64,000 nt of DNA, taken from NCBI RefSeq assembly GCF_000007925.1, contig NC_005042.1:1364001-1428000 (forward strand), written 5' to 3'. This DNA is from Prochlorococcus marinus subsp. marinus str. CCMP1375 (GTDB lineage: Bacteria; Cyanobacteriota; Cyanobacteriia; PCC-6307; Cyanobiaceae). Below, piece after piece: positions 25,491-60,221 of this stretch. The notes beneath the pieces are model-generated. The model did no database searches. It had not been told where the DNA came from and saw nothing but the letters and a program-made list of their open reading frames with translations. Position 1 is the stretch's first letter, and each line of letters begins with the position of its first letter. Made by a program: the position numbers and the translations under genes.

Positions 25491-25721
25491 TTAAGATTCA
25501 CTAATTGAGCTAAAACATTTTTCTTCAACCGATTTCAATCTTTGTTCAACTGACAAAATCCTTGATTCTATTCCCTTAGGGGAATCATTTTCTAGTTTAT
25601 TAGAAATAGTCTCAGAAACAAATGCTGAGATTGTTTGACCAGAACTAATAGCAACTCTTTTCAACTGCTCCATTAATTCAGGTTCAATATTGATATTAAG
25701 CTGTGTTCTTGTTGTAGCCAT
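25491..25721 (-). CDS. Ribbon-helix-helix regulator with coiled-coil tail, 76 aa
   Basis: The ATG at 25721 gives MATTRTQLNINIEPELMEQL, which aligns with the starts of the paralogues at 30509 and 50690; the upstream ATG at 25766 adds unrelated residues. The RHH DNA-binding fold spans residues 4-45 and a heptad-like tail (RILSVEQRLKSVEEK) follows. It is divergent from a short RHH gene at 25834, with three CTAG motifs between them. Probably a dimeric autoregulated repressor. Confidence 0.8.
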   Translation of the reverse strand: MATTRTQLNINIEPELMEQLKRVAISSGQTISAFVSETISNKLENDSPKGIESRILSVEQRLKSVEEKCFSSISES

Positions 25722-25804: not shown

Positions 25805-25827
25805 CTAGACTATCTAGATAAGGCTAG
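25805..25827. promoter_or_regulatory. CTAG iterons between divergent RHH genes
   Basis: CTAG occurs at 25805, 25814 and 25824, spaced 9 and 10 bp, so the motifs face the same side of the helix. RHH proteins bind short repeats of this kind cooperatively. The same design is found at 51413 and 57960. Confidence 0.55.
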
Positions 25828-25833
25828 TTGCAT

Positions 25834-26007
25834 GTGATTGAAAACAATAAGCAAGTACCACAAGAGGAGGAAATGTCCTTTGAATTAACTGATGAAATCA
25901 TTTTCAAACTAAGAACTTTTGCCAAGGAAGAGAATAAGAGTATCAATGAATTCATTAATGAGCTCCTTGAAGAAGCAATTAAAGAAGAAAATGAATCAGA
26001 AGATTAA
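25834..26007 (+). CDS. Short ribbon-helix-helix protein, 57 aa
   Basis: The RHH motif is SFELTDEIIFKLRTFAKEEN then SINEFINELLEEAI. I use GTG 25834 because the paralogue at 51481 has a similar 15-residue leader before its RHH part; ATG 25873, with AGGAGG only 2 nt away, is the alternative. The acidic tail EENESED follows. Divergent from the longer RHH gene. Confidence 0.7.
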   Translation: MIENNKQVPQEEEMSFELTDEIIFKLRTFAKEENKSINEFINELLEEAIKEENESED

Positions 26008-30508: not shown

Positions 30509-31066
30509 ATGGCAAAAAGAAGGTCCCAACTGAATATAAATATTGATCCAGAATTATTATTATGGCTAAAGACTGAATCAACTAAGTCAGGAAAAACTTT
30601 AACAGCCTTTGTCACTGAAAAACTAATGGGGACATCACCACCCTCTACTGATCATTTAGATTTACTGGAGAATAGACTCTTAAAGATAGAAGAACTGCTT
30701 CAGCTAAAAAACATATACTCTCATCAAGAAAATCAGATGGGAACTATTTTTACTGATGAGGGAGCAAAGAAATATGGTGAAGTTGCTAAGAGACTTTTTG
30801 AATCACATCGTAAACATAAAAACTTGTCTCTTGACGCTGCCTTGAAAGGCCTTGCTGATCATCTCAAAAATTACCCAAATAGTAATCCTGAACTGGTGTT
30901 CCAGATCCTATTAGGCAATCATGTCTTAACAGGTCCAGAAATGACAAATGCCTATAGAAGGGGATCTTGTGCCATGAGAAGCGCTCTATGCGATTGGAGC
31001 AATGACTCTTTAGAAGAATTAAACGAGGTTTTTCTAAATGCAGTGATTACTAAAAAGCTGGCTTAA
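30509..31066 (+). CDS. RHH regulator with a helical C-terminal domain, 185 aa
   Basis: MAKRRSQLNINIDPELLLWL opens an RHH domain (residues 5-45) homologous to those at 25491 and 50690, followed by a coiled coil (LLENRLLKIEELLQ) and a helical domain of about 110 residues (DEGAKKYGEVAKRLFESHRK, ALCDWSNDSLEELNEVFLNA). The C-terminal domain is distantly similar to that of the 50690 protein (LT-x-x-EM, W). Probably a DNA-binding regulator of the island. The longer frame from 30398 starts inside the upstream terminator, so the ATG at 30509 is used. Confidence 0.8.
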   Translation: MAKRRSQLNINIDPELLLWLKTESTKSGKTLTAFVTEKLMGTSPPSTDHLDLLENRLLKIEELLQLKNIYSHQENQMGTIFTDEGAKKYGEVAKRLFESHRKHKNLSLDAALKGLADHLKNYPNSNPELVFQILLGNHVLTGPEMTNAYRRGSCAMRSALCDWSNDSLEELNEVFLNAVITKKLA

Positions 31067-38125: not shown

Positions 38126-40240
38126 TTATTTTATTAAATTATTCTCTTTTAAAAAGTTTAGAAGGTCATTGCTATAGTGTTTTGCAGTAGCATATGAAAT
38201 ATGATTAGTATCTGAATATATGTATTCATTATTCTCTTTATTAAGACAAATCTTATTAGGGCAAATTTTATCAAATAAATCATATATATACACATTACTT
38301 TGATTTAAACTAATCTCTTTTAAAGCAGAGGTTATTGGTTTGATTCTAGTAATTAAAAAGTTCTTTTCTTCCTTATATACCTTGCAATCTTCATTTATAT
38401 ATGGTCGAAACCACTCTTCCAGGCATGAGTATTGAGGTGGTGGATTATCAATACCTTCAAATACAGGTAAAGGGGATACAATAACAATATGAATACCTAG
38501 TTTCTTTACTCTTTCTGCTAAAGATCTGACTTTTTCAGTCCATTCTATTAATGATTCATCTGCTTCAATTTCTTTCAGACTATCTGAGTAATGCTTAACA
38601 GGAAAATCACCTTTTGTAATTATCGGTTCAATAAAATATTTATCTAGTCTTGATGATAAGACAATAATATCGTTTTCTTTAAGCAGTGGAAGTCTATTTT
38701 CGAATGCTTCATTTGTATTTCTAAATCTTTCTTTAGAAACATCAAGTGTATTACCTGCTTTGTCTGTAAAATGTGTTGTGGGGTAAGGACCTGGAGAGGA
38801 TACATACACACCTACTCCTGATAAATTATGTAAAGCTCCAATCAGTGGTATTAAGTGTCCCGCATGGCTATCTCCAATCAATAGAATTGTTGGCAAATCA
38901 GCTTCTTTTGATGCTGTATAACAGCTTTTGACTAAATCAGATTGATGGCAAGAACCATATGTAGCTGATATATATTCAGAAGAGTAACCTCCATCAATAT
39001 CTATATTATGTTTACCAATGAACAATTTTTTGTTTATTGGTTGCAAAGAATTCAGGATAGATAGTCTTGGAGTCCTAATGAAGCAAATTACTAAAAATAT
39101 ACTTGTCGTGATCACACAAAGTATAGAAAAATATATACTTTTTAGCTTGCTAATATTATATTTGCTTTTTCGTATAGGCAACTCTATATAATCATAGGAA
39201 AAAGTAGATATAAAATACATAAAATATAGCTGAAATGGAAGAGTCCACCAATGTATTCCTACCGTCCACTTGCTAATAGAAATTACGCCCCAGTGCCAAA
39301 GATATAATGAATATGAAATTAAGCCTAAATTCATGCATAACTTTGTTGTTAATATTTTATAAACTTTATCGTTCATTTTAATTCTAATGATCAAAAGACA
39401 TGTAAATAAAATAATTGCAAGTGTTGAAGAGAATATATACTTACCAGGACTAAACATGATTAAAATTAAAGCTATAAATATCAAAGATGTTTTGAGATAT
39501 TTAAACTTATTAATTACTGATAATAATTTTTCTTTATATATAAATAGCAGGCTTCCAGCTGCTATTTCCCAAAACCTAAAAGGCATAAGGTAATAGGCTG
39601 CATTTATATTTATTTGAAGAAAATGGTAAAACCCAATTAATGAAATAAAAGCAAAGAATATAAGTATAATTCCAAGATATTTATATCCATTCTTGCTGCC
39701 ATTCCCAAATCCTGAGAACCATGTGAGGAAAGGAAATATCAAGTAAAATTGTTCTTCTACTGCTAAAGACCATGTCTGGGTGAATGGATTTAACAATGTT
39801 GTCTCTGCAAAATAATTATTTGAAATTACAAAAAGGTGTATATTCGAGAAACCAAATGTTGAGAATAAGCCTGTCAGATAAGAAGAGACTGGTTGCGGAT
39901 CAAATAAACTTATTACAAAGAACATTATAAGAACATAAAACAATAACGCAGGTAAAATCCTCTTTAACCTCCTTTCGTAAAAACCCAATATGAATTCTGA
40001 TATCCTTGATTCTTGACGAGTTGCCAGTGAAGATGTAATTACATAACCTGAAATTACAAAGAAAATATCTACACCTAAGAACCCACTGGGAAGTAAATCA
40101 TTATTTATATGGTTAATTATAACTGCAATTACTGCTATCGCTCTTAACCCATTTATTTCTGGTCTAAAGCCTTTAGTGCTTAAATTCTCTTTCTCATAAT
40201 AATCTTTGTGAAATAGATCATATTGCGATTTGCTTTTCAT
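38126..40240 (-). CDS. OafA/YrhL-type O-acyltransferase with C-terminal SGNH domain
   Basis: Residues about 25-375 form the membrane acyltransferase-3 domain with ten or so helices (INGLRAIAVIAVIINHIN, GVDIFFVISGYV, WSLAVEEQFYL). Residues about 430-700 form an extracytoplasmic SGNH hydrolase domain with LLIGDSHAGH and the terminal DTNHISYATA (D-x-x-H). Such fusions transfer acetyl groups to O-antigen, capsule or peptidoglycan sugars. The 704-residue length is normal. An alternative cell-surface modification role could alter phage receptors. The gene is notably AT-rich compared with neighbours, consistent with transfer. Confidence 0.92.
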   Translation of the reverse strand: MKSKSQYDLFHKDYYEKENLSTKGFRPEINGLRAIAVIAVIINHINNDLLPSGFLGVDIFFVISGYVITSSLATRQESRISEFILGFYERRLKRILPALLFYVLIMFFVISLFDPQPVSSYLTGLFSTFGFSNIHLFVISNNYFAETTLLNPFTQTWSLAVEEQFYLIFPFLTWFSGFGNGSKNGYKYLGIILIFFAFISLIGFYHFLQININAAYYLMPFRFWEIAAGSLLFIYKEKLLSVINKFKYLKTSLIFIALILIMFSPGKYIFSSTLAIILFTCLLIIRIKMNDKVYKILTTKLCMNLGLISYSLYLWHWGVISISKWTVGIHWWTLPFQLYFMYFISTFSYDYIELPIRKSKYNISKLKSIYFSILCVITTSIFLVICFIRTPRLSILNSLQPINKKLFIGKHNIDIDGGYSSEYISATYGSCHQSDLVKSCYTASKEADLPTILLIGDSHAGHLIPLIGALHNLSGVGVYVSSPGPYPTTHFTDKAGNTLDVSKERFRNTNEAFENRLPLLKENDIIVLSSRLDKYFIEPIITKGDFPVKHYSDSLKEIEADESLIEWTEKVRSLAERVKKLGIHIVIVSPLPVFEGIDNPPPQYSCLEEWFRPYINEDCKVYKEEKNFLITRIKPITSALKEISLNQSNVYIYDLFDKICPNKICLNKENNEYIYSDTNHISYATAKHYSNDLLNFLKENNLIK

Positions 40241-40504
40241 TCTTATTCAGCAGATTTCTCTTGACAAATGAGGAATTACGCTGACTGCTGAAGCATTAAA
40301 ACATATTTTTCTAGATTATCTAGGTACGCTAGATCAGGCTGTTACTTTTGAAATGATAAAAAGCCTAAAATTAACCTATAACTACCTTTGGCTGATTTCT
40401 CTTCTTTTACAAATTCAGCTATTTATGTATAAATCCTATAAGCGCTTTACATTCCATTTCTAGCTTTTCCTGAAAGACTCTTCGTTTTGGACAAAAATAA
40501 AGAG

Positions 40505-50689: not shown

Positions 50690-51310
50690 TCACAAAGCAT
50701 ATAATTGTTCTAAAAGCTTCTCACCTTCGTCACAGATAGTTTGCTGTGATGGAAAGTACTCATTAGCACAACTGCATTTGCCCTTCGGTTGATTATTGAT
50801 CCAATTGATCAATCCCGTTCTGATCGGGCAAGGGCATATTTTGCCTTTAGTTAATGAGTTCATTTCATCGCAAGTTAAGTCATCTCCACCCTTGATAAAC
50901 AGAGCCTCTTTCAACCTAAGGGTAATGATGTCATTCCACTGATCGAAACATTCGATGTGACCAATTAAATCATTCCATGCATCAATACTTGAATTATATT
51001 GCTGCCTTTTGGTCTCTTCTAGAAAGACACCTTTGATAAATGCATTACAATTTTCTGCTTCGCTAATTGTAAATGGAGTGATTTTTTGACCCGAAGAGAC
51101 CTGAGAACAACACTTTTCAAGAGAACTTATTTTTTGTTCAACTGCAAAAAGCCTAGCCTCTAGAGTTCGTTCAGAAATAGTGTTATTTAATTGATTAGTT
51201 ATAGCATCAGAAACAAGCTCTGTTAAGGTTCTGCGTTGCTTACTCGCTTCAGATTTCAGCTTTAACAATAAGTCAGGATTAATATTAATGTTTAACTGAG
51301 TTCTAAGCAT
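50690..51310 (-). CDS. RHH regulator with Cys-rich C-terminal domain, 206 aa
   Basis: RTQLNINPDLLLKLKSEA-type RHH fold at residues 3-42, a coiled coil (LEARLFAVEQKISSLEKCC) and a C-terminal domain related to that of the 30509 protein. About ten cysteines, clustered in KICPCPIRTG and KGKCSCANEYF, could bind zinc or an iron-sulfur cluster and sense redox or metals. Divergent from a short RHH gene, with CTAG iterons between. Confidence 0.8.
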   Translation of the reverse strand: MLRTQLNININPDLLLKLKSEASKQRRTLTELVSDAITNQLNNTISERTLEARLFAVEQKISSLEKCCSQVSSGQKITPFTISEAENCNAFIKGVFLEETKRQQYNSSIDAWNDLIGHIECFDQWNDIITLRLKEALFIKGGDDLTCDEMNSLTKGKICPCPIRTGLINWINNQPKGKCSCANEYFPSQQTICDEGEKLLEQLYAL

Positions 51311-51412
51311 GACTTTAAAATTAATCTCTGCAAAATGAACCTATTGCATCAATATAGAAAAACTAATCGGATTTAGGAACAAAATTTAGCTTTTTTGAGA
51401 TCTTGCCAACGT

Positions 51413-51449
51413 CTAGATAGGTCTAGACACGTCTAGAGGCTCTAGCTAG
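51413..51449. promoter_or_regulatory. CTAG iterons between divergent RHH genes
   Basis: GTCTAGA occurs at 51411, 51421 and 51431, exactly 10 bp apart, and further CTAGs at 51442 and 51446. Direct repeats on one helical face between two divergent RHH genes are what an RHH operator looks like. Confidence 0.65.
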
Positions 51450-51480
51450 TATCTAAATGTCCTAAAAACAGCTAAGCAAC

Positions 51481-51630
51481 ATGTCTGAGGATTTAACTAA
51501 TAATTCTGTAGGCCCTCAAATAACTATGGAGTTAAATAACGAGGTCATGGCTAAGCTGAACTATATAGCAAAAGAGAGGAAGATGACTATCAATGAACTG
51601 ATTAATCGCCTTCTAGCAGAATCAATTTAG
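51481..51630 (+). CDS. Short ribbon-helix-helix protein, 49 aa
   Basis: MSEDLTNNSVGPQITMELNN then VMAKLNYIAKERKMTINELI forms an RHH fold. Paralogue of 25834-26007 with the same divergent arrangement. Possibly the co-repressor or antagonist of the long RHH partner. Confidence 0.72.
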   Translation: MSEDLTNNSVGPQITMELNNEVMAKLNYIAKERKMTINELINRLLAESI

Positions 51631-52583: not shown

Positions 52584-52748
52584 ATGACTCTTAGTCCTCA
52601 TAAACAGCACAAAATTTATATCGCAGCAACGATGGTATATGGGCTTGGTTCAGAAGATCCTGAAGAAGTTAGCTATTGCACGCAAATCAAAGAAGAGATG
52701 AAGAAAGATAGAAAAAACGGGAATCTAGGAATATCGAGATCTAACTAA
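52584..52748 (+). CDS. Small soluble protein, 54 aa (copy 1)
   Basis: MTLSPHKQHKIYIAATMVYG opens a charged helical protein ending GNLGISRSN. The paralogue at 55823-55987 has the same length and differs at about ten residues, showing selection on the protein. Unknown function. Confidence 0.72.
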   Translation: MTLSPHKQHKIYIAATMVYGLGSEDPEEVSYCTQIKEEMKKDRKNGNLGISRSN

Positions 52749-55822: not shown

Positions 55823-55987
55823 ATGACTCTTAGTCCTCATCGACAACACAAAATTTATATCGCAGCAACTATGAGATATGGTCTTGGTTCAAAAGATCCA
55901 GAAGAAGTTGCCTATTACAAGCAGATCAAAGAAAAGATGAAGAAAGACAGAGAAAACGGGAATCTAGGAGTTTCGAGATCGGACTAA
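55823..55987 (+). CDS. Small soluble protein, 54 aa (copy 2)
   Basis: MTLSPHRQHKIYIAATMRYG, ending GNLGVSRSD. Paralogue of 52584-52748. It begins directly after the stop of the membrane gene, so the two form an operon here; in the other copy the partner is broken. Confidence 0.75.
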   Translation: MTLSPHRQHKIYIAATMRYGLGSKDPEEVAYYKQIKEKMKKDRENGNLGVSRSD

Positions 55988-56048: not shown

Positions 56049-56324
56049 ATGAGCATTTCCGTTACATCTCCATGCTCTAAAAGCACAATTGAAGATCTAG
56101 GCATAAAAAACTGGCCAATATGGACTTGTGATCCAAGCACTTTCCCTTGGACATATCGCGAGAAAGAAACCTGTTTAATACTTGAAGGAGAAATCACAGT
56201 GACTCCTAATGGTGGGGAGCCAGTCAAATTTGGAGTCGGTGATTTAATTGTTTTTCCTGAGGGGATGTCTTGTACCTGGGAAGTGCATAAAGCAGTCAAA
56301 AAACACTATCGTTTTGGCAACTAA
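56049..56324 (+). CDS. Small cupin-domain protein (DUF861/EutQ-like)
   Basis: The 91-residue protein is a single cupin: WPIWTCDPSTFPWTYREKET, CLILEGEITVTPNGGEPVKF, GDLIVFPEGMSCTWEVHKAV. The metal-ligand His residues of enzymatic cupins are largely absent (only one His), as in the DUF861 branch, so a sugar-binding or structural role is more likely than catalysis. Monocistronic, with a GATAAT element upstream. Confidence 0.88.
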   Translation: MSISVTSPCSKSTIEDLGIKNWPIWTCDPSTFPWTYREKETCLILEGEITVTPNGGEPVKFGVGDLIVFPEGMSCTWEVHKAVKKHYRFGN

Positions 56325-57959: not shown

Positions 57960-57981
57960 CTAGACGATCTAGTTTGGCTAG
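57960..57981. promoter_or_regulatory. CTAG array upstream of the 58025 gene
   Basis: CTAG at 57960, 57969 and 57978, each 9 bp apart, about 45-65 bp before the ATG. Same style as the arrays at the two RHH loci, so a candidate target of an RHH regulator. Confidence 0.45.
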
Positions 57982-58024: not shown

Positions 58025-58663
58025 ATGAAAAAGAAAGCATTAGTCATATCTTGTATGTCTTTCATAGCTTTAGGAAGTTTCTTAACACCCCAATCCCAAG
58101 CATATGAAATGGAAGGCACCTGTGATGGAGCTGATAAATGCAAAGTGACTATCAACGGAGATCAAATAAATACTAGTACAGGAATTAATATTAGCTCCGA
58201 TAATATTATTGGCTGGTCATTCAGTAATTCTTCAAAACGAGGCGGATTTTTCCCTGGTTACAGGAACGAAGATTATCGAATACTTATCAAGTACTTCGAT
58301 AAATCTGGAAAGCGCAAAATAAATCAAATTGGTTTCTATAATGCTAAAACAACTCATAATTTCCTAACTAGCCTGGAGCTAATTTCTGGGCTTGGAGTTA
58401 ATCATGATCAAGCAGGAGTGACAACTAAATGTTCAGCTAGAGGCAAAGATAGTAATACAGGGAAAGACGGAAAAAGCACTTTGTTTGGTGTTAATGGCGT
58501 CACGACCAATGGTGGGGCCTTTAGTCTGAAGAAAAACTTCATTAGTGATACACGAAGCGTTCCTGCCAACTCAAACTCATTCTCTGACGATTCATTTACT
58601 GGTAGAGATGACTGTGTAGATGAACCAAAAGTTGGGCCTCTAGAAATTAAGAATGTAAATTAG
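58025..58663 (+). CDS. Secreted protein of unknown function, 212 aa
   Basis: A signal peptide (MKKKALVISCMSFIALGSFL, cut near SQA-Y) and a mature domain starting YEMEGTCDGADKCKVTINGD. It shares layout with the 59583 protein: C-x-G-x-K-C-K near the start, I-x-x-W, then YFDKSGKRKINQIGFYNAKT and a helix (NFLTSLELISGLG). The second half is Ser/Asn/Gly-rich. Probably periplasmic or surface. A clear terminator follows. Confidence 0.75.
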   Translation: MKKKALVISCMSFIALGSFLTPQSQAYEMEGTCDGADKCKVTINGDQINTSTGINISSDNIIGWSFSNSSKRGGFFPGYRNEDYRILIKYFDKSGKRKINQIGFYNAKTTHNFLTSLELISGLGVNHDQAGVTTKCSARGKDSNTGKDGKSTLFGVNGVTTNGGAFSLKKNFISDTRSVPANSNSFSDDSFTGRDDCVDEPKVGPLEIKNVN

Positions 58664-59582: not shown

Positions 59583-60221
59583 TTAAAGAGAATCAGGGAG
59601 AGTCCTTTCATTATTGCCGCGAGGCTTTCCTAAATTCATGGGTAAAATTTCTTTCCAAGAACCAGTTCTAGCCTCCCTTTTTGTAGCATCTTTTATCTCC
59701 TTGAGAGATCTTAATTCTCCCATTGCAAGTCCTGTCACTATAGGAAGTTCTTGCATTATTTTGCCAACAGGCTTTTTATTAATGAAATTGAAACTCTGAA
59801 TGGTTTTTTTTCCGTTTTGATCATAACCAACAACTGTGAAATAAAAATCTGCTGACTTACCTAATTGTGAGCCACCTACTCCTCCAGCAGCTCCTCCAGC
59901 AATAATTCCTGGGCCGCAAAGAACTATTGTCCAACAAGTTGCCAACCCGCCTATAACAGCTCCTCCTACAGCTCCTCCGCCAGCGCCTACTGCAGCTACT
60001 CCTTTGTTATGATCTGAACCGCCACCTGTATACCATTGAGCAATTTTATAGGAAGGCATAAACCCACTTGGTCCAGTAACACCTTTCCCATCAAGAATAA
60101 TCTTGCATTTCAGACCATTACATATAGCATCGTAATTTCCAGCCAAAGTAATCCCACCCCCCTGAAGTAATAAAACTGATGCAACTCCAACAGGCATCAA
60201 TTTTCTCAAACTATTAAACAT
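59583..60221 (-). CDS. Secreted protein with a glycine-zipper segment, 212 aa
   Basis: A signal peptide (MFNSLRKLMPVGVASVLLLQ, cut near TLA-G) leads a domain with AICNGLKCKIILDGKG, IAQWYTGGGS and FTVVGYDQNGKKTIQSFNFI. Between them is a hydrophobic Gly-rich block (GAGGGAVGGAVIGGLATCW, then GPGIIAGGAAGGVGG), a glycine zipper that could insert in a membrane. The 58025 protein has the same flanking domain without the zipper. Function unknown. Confidence 0.75.
   Translation of the reverse strand: MFNSLRKLMPVGVASVLLLQGGGITLAGNYDAICNGLKCKIILDGKGVTGPSGFMPSYKIAQWYTGGGSDHNKGVAAVGAGGGAVGGAVIGGLATCWTIVLCGPGIIAGGAAGGVGGSQLGKSADFYFTVVGYDQNGKKTIQSFNFINKKPVGKIMQELPIVTGLAMGELRSLKEIKDATKREARTGSWKEILPMNLGKPRGNNERTLPDSL

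What the first reader, a model, noticed from the sequence alone, without database searches (positions are those of the whole stretch)
51411..51450. Three GTCTAGA repeats exactly 10 bp apart between divergent RHH genes (locus B)
GTCTAGA begins at 51411, 51421 and 51431, followed by CTAG at 51442 and 51446. Exact one-turn spacing puts all sites on one face of the helix, the hallmark of cooperative dimer arrays. The motif core is the same CTAG as at locus A although the surrounding sequence has diverged.
Basis: partly seen in the sequence, partly recalled or inferred. Interest (0 to 1): 0.75.

Follow-up and report, generated by a model that had tools for sequence, protein, structure and literature searches.

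The report
CTAG operator arrays for Prochlorococcus repressors
The evenly spaced GTCTAGA repeats are almost certainly docking sites for a family of small DNA-binding regulators found only in Prochlorococcus relatives here, and the same repeats sit in front of many outer-surface genes, pointing to an unreported control network in an organism known for having few regulators.

Summary
Three GTCTAGA copies begin at 51411, 51421 and 51431, with CTAG also at 51442 and 51446. Chance expectation is nil. Three further CTAG triplets lie in the window: 25805 (locus A), 40311 and 57960. Genome-wide there is one other, inside a coding frame. The genome length matches Prochlorococcus SS120 (identified from memory).

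In 71 non-redundant promoters of homologues of the 206-aa RHH gene (50690-51310), two CTAGs lie 9 bp apart 36 times against 0.28 expected. The class rule is therefore 9 bp (range 8-10); locus B's 10 bp is a variant. Triple arrays occur in 37 of 45 small genomes carrying this RHH family, against 7 of 32 lacking it.

Arrays also precede envelope genes: porins, OMP barrels, autotransporter/adhesin-type and RTX proteins, glycan-type enzymes. In high-light clades the array sits at a neighbouring porin/DUF3721-lipoprotein promoter, where two CTAGs are kept in 23/23 and 22/23 genomes while spacers drift.

Best reading: tandem operators of an RHH autoregulator family, probably repressors, controlling local envelope genes. 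Binding, sign and signal are untested. The 206-aa type has a conserved cysteine-bearing C-terminal domain; metal or redox sensing is possible but unproven.

The parts
51411..51449 (.). Array B: CTAG at 51413, 51423, 51433, 51442, 51446 (steps 10, 10, 9, 4), about 100-140 bp upstream of the 50690-51310 start and 32 bp upstream of the 51481 start
50690..51310 (-). RHH regulator, 206 aa: N-terminal RHH (strand RTQLNINI), coiled coil, helical C-terminal domain with conserved Cys 121, 159, 179, 181, 193
   Evidence: (sub-threshold Pfam)
51481..51630 (+). Divergent small RHH protein, 49 aa (strand QITMEL, acidic third outward residue)
25805..25827 (.). Array A: three CTAG (steps 9, 10) between divergent RHH genes
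25491..25721 (-). Short homologous RHH protein, 76 aa (RTQLNINI)
25828..26007 (+). Divergent small RHH protein, up to 59 aa (MSFELT strand); the listed TTG start abuts the array, the ATG further in is more likely
40311..40332 (.). Array of three CTAG (steps 9, 9), 70 bp upstream of the acyltransferase start
38126..40240 (-). Acyl_transf_3 + SGNH acyltransferase, candidate target
57960..57981 (.). Array of three CTAG (steps 9, 9), 43 bp upstream of the 58025 start
58025..58663 (+). Predicted secreted 212-aa protein, candidate target; homologues in four other genomes also have 8-9 bp CTAG pairs or triples upstream
30509..31063 (+). Second-type RHH homologue, 184 aa, no CTAG array in its own promoter

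Best explanation
The repeats are a tandem operator. Each CTAG centre (in B the palindrome GTCTAGAC or GTCTAGA) is most likely bound by one RHH dimer of the 50690-51310 family, with neighbouring dimers 9 bp apart (8-10 tolerated), binding together. At loci A and B the array lies between divergent RHH genes and gives autoregulation of both. The same protein family acts in trans on like arrays in front of envelope genes (here the acyltransferase at 38126 and the secreted protein at 58025; elsewhere porins, OMP barrels, inverse autotransporter, YadA-like and RTX proteins, glycan enzymes). Repression is more likely than activation, because arrays stand at very variable positions (1-76 bp from target start codons, before or after a -10-like hexamer). 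Shown here: the arrays, their spacing rule, their conservation, their association with RHH genes and their position. Inferred: binding, one dimer per CTAG, cooperativity, repression, and the C-terminal domain as the signal input.
For: Spacing 9 bp seen 36x vs 0.28 expected in 71 non-redundant RHH promoters, triple arrays 15 vs 0.005, confined to about -60 to -140. Triple arrays in 37/45 RHH-bearing vs 7/32 RHH-lacking genomes up to 2.05 Mb (Fisher p 1.4e-7, not corrected for kinship). Arrays occur at RHH promoters of two diverged subfamilies and of the short form. 42 of 46 long-type RHH loci carry a CTAG chain within the fetched flanks. In 23 aligned high-light loci the second and third CTAG persist in 23/23 and 22/23 while spacers are 0.62 and the DNA beyond the array 0.53 identical. 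Target arrays are mostly intergenic (27 of 42 sampled in RHH genomes, hand count) and precede envelope genes by Pfam. The 58025-family link recurs in G119, G026, G070 and G156. Residues 2-49 match RHH structures (TacA2, KacA, CopG-DNA, AtaR).
Against: No binding or expression data. Arrays are absent from the own promoters of many members (high-light clade, some low-light), although most of these have one nearby. Seven RHH-lacking small genomes have a triple array, and about a third of sampled arrays in RHH genomes fall inside coding genes, so background is not zero. The RHH Pfam hits are below curated cut-offs. Relatedness of genomes inflates all counts. The position of the -10 relative to the array is not uniform, so the sign of regulation is not settled.
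Confidence: 0.77

Rival explanations
1. The arrays are operators of the small divergent RHH protein (51481 type), and the large RHH gene is merely its target.
For: A small RHH gene stands divergently across the array at loci A and B and in three other lineages (L176, L213, L255).
Against: Detected in only 2 of 151 genomes by sequence (divergent ones are missed), and arrays occur at large-RHH promoters without any such gene. All five have an acidic residue at the third outward strand position, where the large type mostly has Asn or Ser, which argues against strong major-groove contact (inference).
Confidence: 0.1
2. The arrays are sites for another, unlinked regulator that controls envelope genes and also the RHH genes.
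For: Some small genomes have triple arrays but no RHH hit; targets are functionally broad.
Against: Array counts follow RHH presence; arrays sit at RHH promoters in separate subfamilies or at the adjacent promoter when the RHH promoter lacks one.
Confidence: 0.1
3. The RHH protein activates rather than represses, with the array in the -35 region of promoters lacking a -35 box.
For: In several promoters a -10-like TATAAT directly follows the last CTAG (L088, L143, L038, L042).
Against: At porin and lipoprotein promoters the array lies 1-40 bp from the start codon; in the high-light lipoprotein promoter a conserved TGACAA lies upstream of the array, which fits a roadblock or promoter occlusion better.
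Confidence: 0.22
4. Chance clustering of CTAG in AT-rich intergenic DNA.
For: Some triples in conserved coding genes (psaA, groEL, clpC, glnA and others) look accidental.
Against: Shuffles and Markov simulation, intergenic placement and conservation.
Confidence: 0.01

Closest known systems
MetJ with tandem met boxes (AGACGTCT, 8-bp step)
   Same: RHH dimers on tandem palindromic boxes, cooperative autorepression (from general knowledge); 8-bp palindromic box resembles GTCTAGAC
   Different: 9-bp step, CTAG core, no MetJ sequence match, different C-terminal domain, envelope rather than methionine targets
Omega/ParB of pSM19035 with 7-bp WATCACW repeats (PMC9499535)
   Same: RHH protein, one dimer per repeat, repeats overlap promoters of several genes including its own
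   Different: 7-bp non-palindromic repeats and plasmid partition; here 9-bp palindromic cores on chromosomes
CopG / TacA / KacA antitoxin-type RHH repressors
   Same: N-terminal RHH fold
   Different: No toxin partner recognised beside the gene; multi-gene envelope association; extra helical Cys-bearing domain
TrcR of Anabaena (PMC10272220)
   Same: Cyanobacterial RHH autorepressor with several targets
   Different: 8-bp TGTAGTAT-type site near -10; reported missing from Prochlorococcus
NikR
   Same: RHH plus a C-terminal domain with potential metal ligands (analogy only)
   Different: No sequence or fold match found; NikR's operator is a spaced dyad rather than a tandem array (general knowledge)

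Membership tests
RHH (MetJ/Arc/CopG) DNA-binding superfamily | N-terminal strand-helix-helix of about 45 residues | tested here: met
   Model residues 2-49 align to a list of RHH chains, best Z 5.3; sub-threshold Pfam/PHROG hits agree. The strand itself has low pLDDT in the monomer
RHH (MetJ/Arc/CopG) DNA-binding superfamily | Alternating polar strand residues facing DNA (Arc Q-N-R) | tested here: met
   Q5 and N7 invariant and position 9 N or S in nearly all; orientation towards DNA is inferred by analogy
RHH (MetJ/Arc/CopG) DNA-binding superfamily | Dimer binds operator DNA | not testable with these tools
   No binding assay
Tandem-operator RHH repressors (MetJ, Omega, ParR type) | Three or more evenly spaced copies of one short site in the regulator's own promoter | tested here: met
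   not universal in the family
Tandem-operator RHH repressors (MetJ, Omega, ParR type) | Cooperative binding and repression | not testable with these tools
   inferred only
Type II toxin-antitoxin antitoxin | Toxin gene in the same operon | tested here: inconclusive
   The partner genes seen are another RHH gene or envelope genes; no toxin family was recognised, but small unknown genes were not all tested
TrcR | TGTAGTAT-type 8-bp site overlapping -10 | tested here: not met
   Core is CTAG with 9-bp step
NikR-like metalloregulator | Metal-binding C-terminal domain | tested here: inconclusive
   Cys 159, 179, 181 invariant and 121 (22/24), 193 (19/24) conserved in the long type; no fold match for the domain

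The most novel reading that the evidence does not exclude
The long RHH type is a new metal- or thiol-responsive regulator with an undescribed helical Cys domain. It controls an outer-membrane metal-uptake module (His-rich Som/OprB-like porin plus DUF3721 His-tailed lipoprotein, beside a Fur-family gene, znuABC and cobW in high-light Prochlorococcus), and the small divergent RHH proteins with an acidic DNA-facing residue are dominant-negative partners that take the large protein off the array.
Probability: 0.2. Interest if true: 0.82.

Novelty: new variant of a known kind. Interest (0 to 1): 0.64.

Why it matters
Prochlorococcus is described as having very few regulators (PMC2518516 abstract). 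A lineage-wide operator code, readable by eye (CTAG every 9 bp), would give a testable handle on how it controls porins, adhesins, RTX proteins and surface sugars, which are the parts that meet phages, grazers and scarce nutrients. No paper found here describes it (open-access library only). The RHH operator spacing of 9 bp would also fill the gap between MetJ (8) and ParR (10) steps, the latter two from general knowledge.

Tried and rejected
(1) Covariation of strand residue 9 with arrays (Asn 24/45 vs Ser/Thr/Val 1/34 in own promoter) was dropped: the Ser clade does have arrays, at the neighbouring lipoprotein promoter. (2) A fixed -10 position relative to the array was not found. (3) The second-type RHH at 30509 has no array or near-array upstream. 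(4) One-mismatch arrays in the genome added one convincing place, the promoter of a fourth RHH gene near 1133241; the others examined lie in coding frames or are unconvincing, and the control pattern (GATC) gave more hits. (5) PDB sequence search with the 206-aa protein gave only noise. (6) Fold searches with the C-terminal domain alone (pLDDT 93) gave no match above Z 3.3, which does not prove a new fold. (7) No relatives in viral contigs by this search, made with the second-type alignment only, so no phage origin was seen. (8) The zinc link is only positional and only in the high-light clade; SS120's locus B has no such neighbours among the genes read.

Full report
What is there. The window lies in a single-contig genome of 1,751,080 bp, position 1364001-1428000. 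That length is, from memory, that of Prochlorococcus marinus SS120; all named relatives found are Prochlorococcus, with one Synechococcaceae MAG. CTAG alone is not enriched in the window, so the signal is the spacing. Five overlapping matches at four places have three or more CTAGs with 9-10 bp steps; a third-order Markov model predicts 0.003. The places are 25805 (locus A), 40311, 51413 (locus B) and 57960. The whole genome has only one more triple, and that lies inside a coding frame. So four of the five lie within 32 kb.

Which protein. Loci A and B each stand between a large-type RHH gene on the minus strand and a small RHH gene on the plus strand. The large genes (206 aa at B, 76 aa at A) share the start RTQLNINI and are homologous. 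A homologue search found the family in 46 of 151 genomes of the GTDB family, and a named-genome scan gave 80 loci, 79 of them labelled Prochlorococcus. The small 51481 protein was found in only 2 of the 151 genomes, one of them this one.

The spacing rule. In 71 non-redundant 250-bp upstream regions of family members, pairs of CTAG 9 bp apart occur 36 times against 0.28 in shuffles, 10 bp 8 times, 8 bp 4 times, with harmonics at 18 (13 times) and 19; triples occur in 15 regions against 0.005; enrichment is confined to about -60 to -140 from the start codon. With 10.5 bp per turn, 9-bp steps rotate successive sites by about -50 degrees rather than stacking them on one face (general knowledge).

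Arrays follow the regulator. Among genomes up to 2.05 Mb, 37 of 45 with the RHH family have a triple array and 7 of 32 without it do (Fisher p 1.4e-7; kinship not corrected). The high-light clade at first looked like an exception because its RHH promoters lack arrays. It is not: 42 of 46 long-type loci have a CTAG chain of at least two within the fetched flanks, in the high-light loci mostly about 0.9 kb downstream of the RHH gene. That place is the promoter of a lipoprotein with a DUF3721 motif and a His-rich tail; in full loci a Som/OprB-like porin faces it, and both promoters carry arrays or share one. In 23 aligned loci the second and third CTAG are kept in 23 and 22, with spacer identity 0.62 and identity beyond the array 0.53. 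This is a strong phylogenetic footprint.

Other targets. Triples inside conserved coding genes such as psaA, groEL and glnA look accidental. Of 42 sampled arrays in RHH-bearing genomes, 27 are intergenic (hand count). Genes behind intergenic arrays include OMP beta-barrels (L087, L155), an inverse autotransporter (L089), a YadA-head protein (L154), RTX-repeat proteins (L126, L144, L160, L161), OprB/SLH-type porins (L153, L169), a glycosyltransferase (L088), methyltransferases (L091, L152), a PfkB/cytidylyltransferase fusion (L162), a D-Ala-D-Ala dipeptidase (L129) and others. In this window the two non-RHH arrays precede an Acyl_transf_3/SGNH acyltransferase and a predicted secreted 212-aa protein without a Pfam match. 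Homologues of the latter in four other genomes also have CTAG pairs or triples with 8-9 bp steps upstream. The common theme is the cell envelope.

How it probably works. RHH proteins bind as dimers through a two-stranded ribbon, and several known ones coat tandem repeats (MetJ, 8 bp, and ParR, 10 bp, from general knowledge; Omega, 7 bp). The family has the RHH fold at residues 2-49, with Q5 and N7 invariant in the strand, the pattern of Arc's Q-N-R contacts (general knowledge). I infer one dimer per CTAG and cooperative filling of the array. Arrays lie 1-76 bp before target start codons at varied distances, and in the high-light lipoprotein promoter a conserved TGACAA lies upstream of the array; this variability fits repression better than activation. 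In several promoters a TATAAT directly follows the last CTAG, which either sign could explain, so the sign is open.

What might be sensed. The long type has a confidently predicted helical C-terminal domain (pLDDT 93) with Cys 159, 179 and 181 invariant and 121 and 193 mostly conserved; the second type keeps only Cys 159. In high-light genomes the RHH gene adjoins a Fur-family gene, znuABC-like genes and cobW. A metal signal is therefore attractive, but it rests on position and cysteines only, and SS120's own locus lacks these neighbours.

The small partner. Small RHH genes stand divergently across the array at A, B and three other lineages; in all five the third outward strand residue is acidic, where the large type mostly has Asn or Ser. 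Such a protein could pair with the large one and weaken DNA binding. This is a hypothesis.

Verdict. The operator interpretation is supported by comparison and extended to a family-wide, envelope-centred operator code. The exact-turn argument is not general. Binding, sign and signal need experiments.

Noticed in passing
58025-58663 and 59583-60221: Two apparently paralogous secreted proteins of 212 aa (CDGADKCKVTINGD / CNGLKCKIILDGKG); only the first has a CTAG array upstream.
   Followed up: partly
52584-52748 and 55823-55987: Two near-identical 54-aa peptides (MTLSPH.QHKIYIAATM.YGLGS.DPEEV) about 3 kb apart, on either side of unrelated genes.
   Followed up: no
56049-56324: Cupin-like 91-aa protein; close copies lie beside RHH genes in other genomes (L265, L270), suggesting a shared variable region.
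   Followed up: no
L181-L212 (about 95 bp upstream of the RHH gene): High-light RHH promoters lack CTAG arrays but share a different conserved block, AGATCAAGAAATCTgAAAATnntAACGATatTG, between the znuB-like and RHH genes; possibly a site for another regulator.
   Followed up: partly
L260:4820-5536 and relatives: DUF3721 occurs both in the His-tailed lipoprotein and at the C-terminus of the next gene's GLTT-repeat protein, beside the Som-type porin in the loci read.
   Followed up: partly
genome G138, contig C10:37534-37585: A longer run of CTAGCTAA repeats with 8-bp period in one genome, looking like a simple tandem repeat rather than an operator.
   Followed up: no
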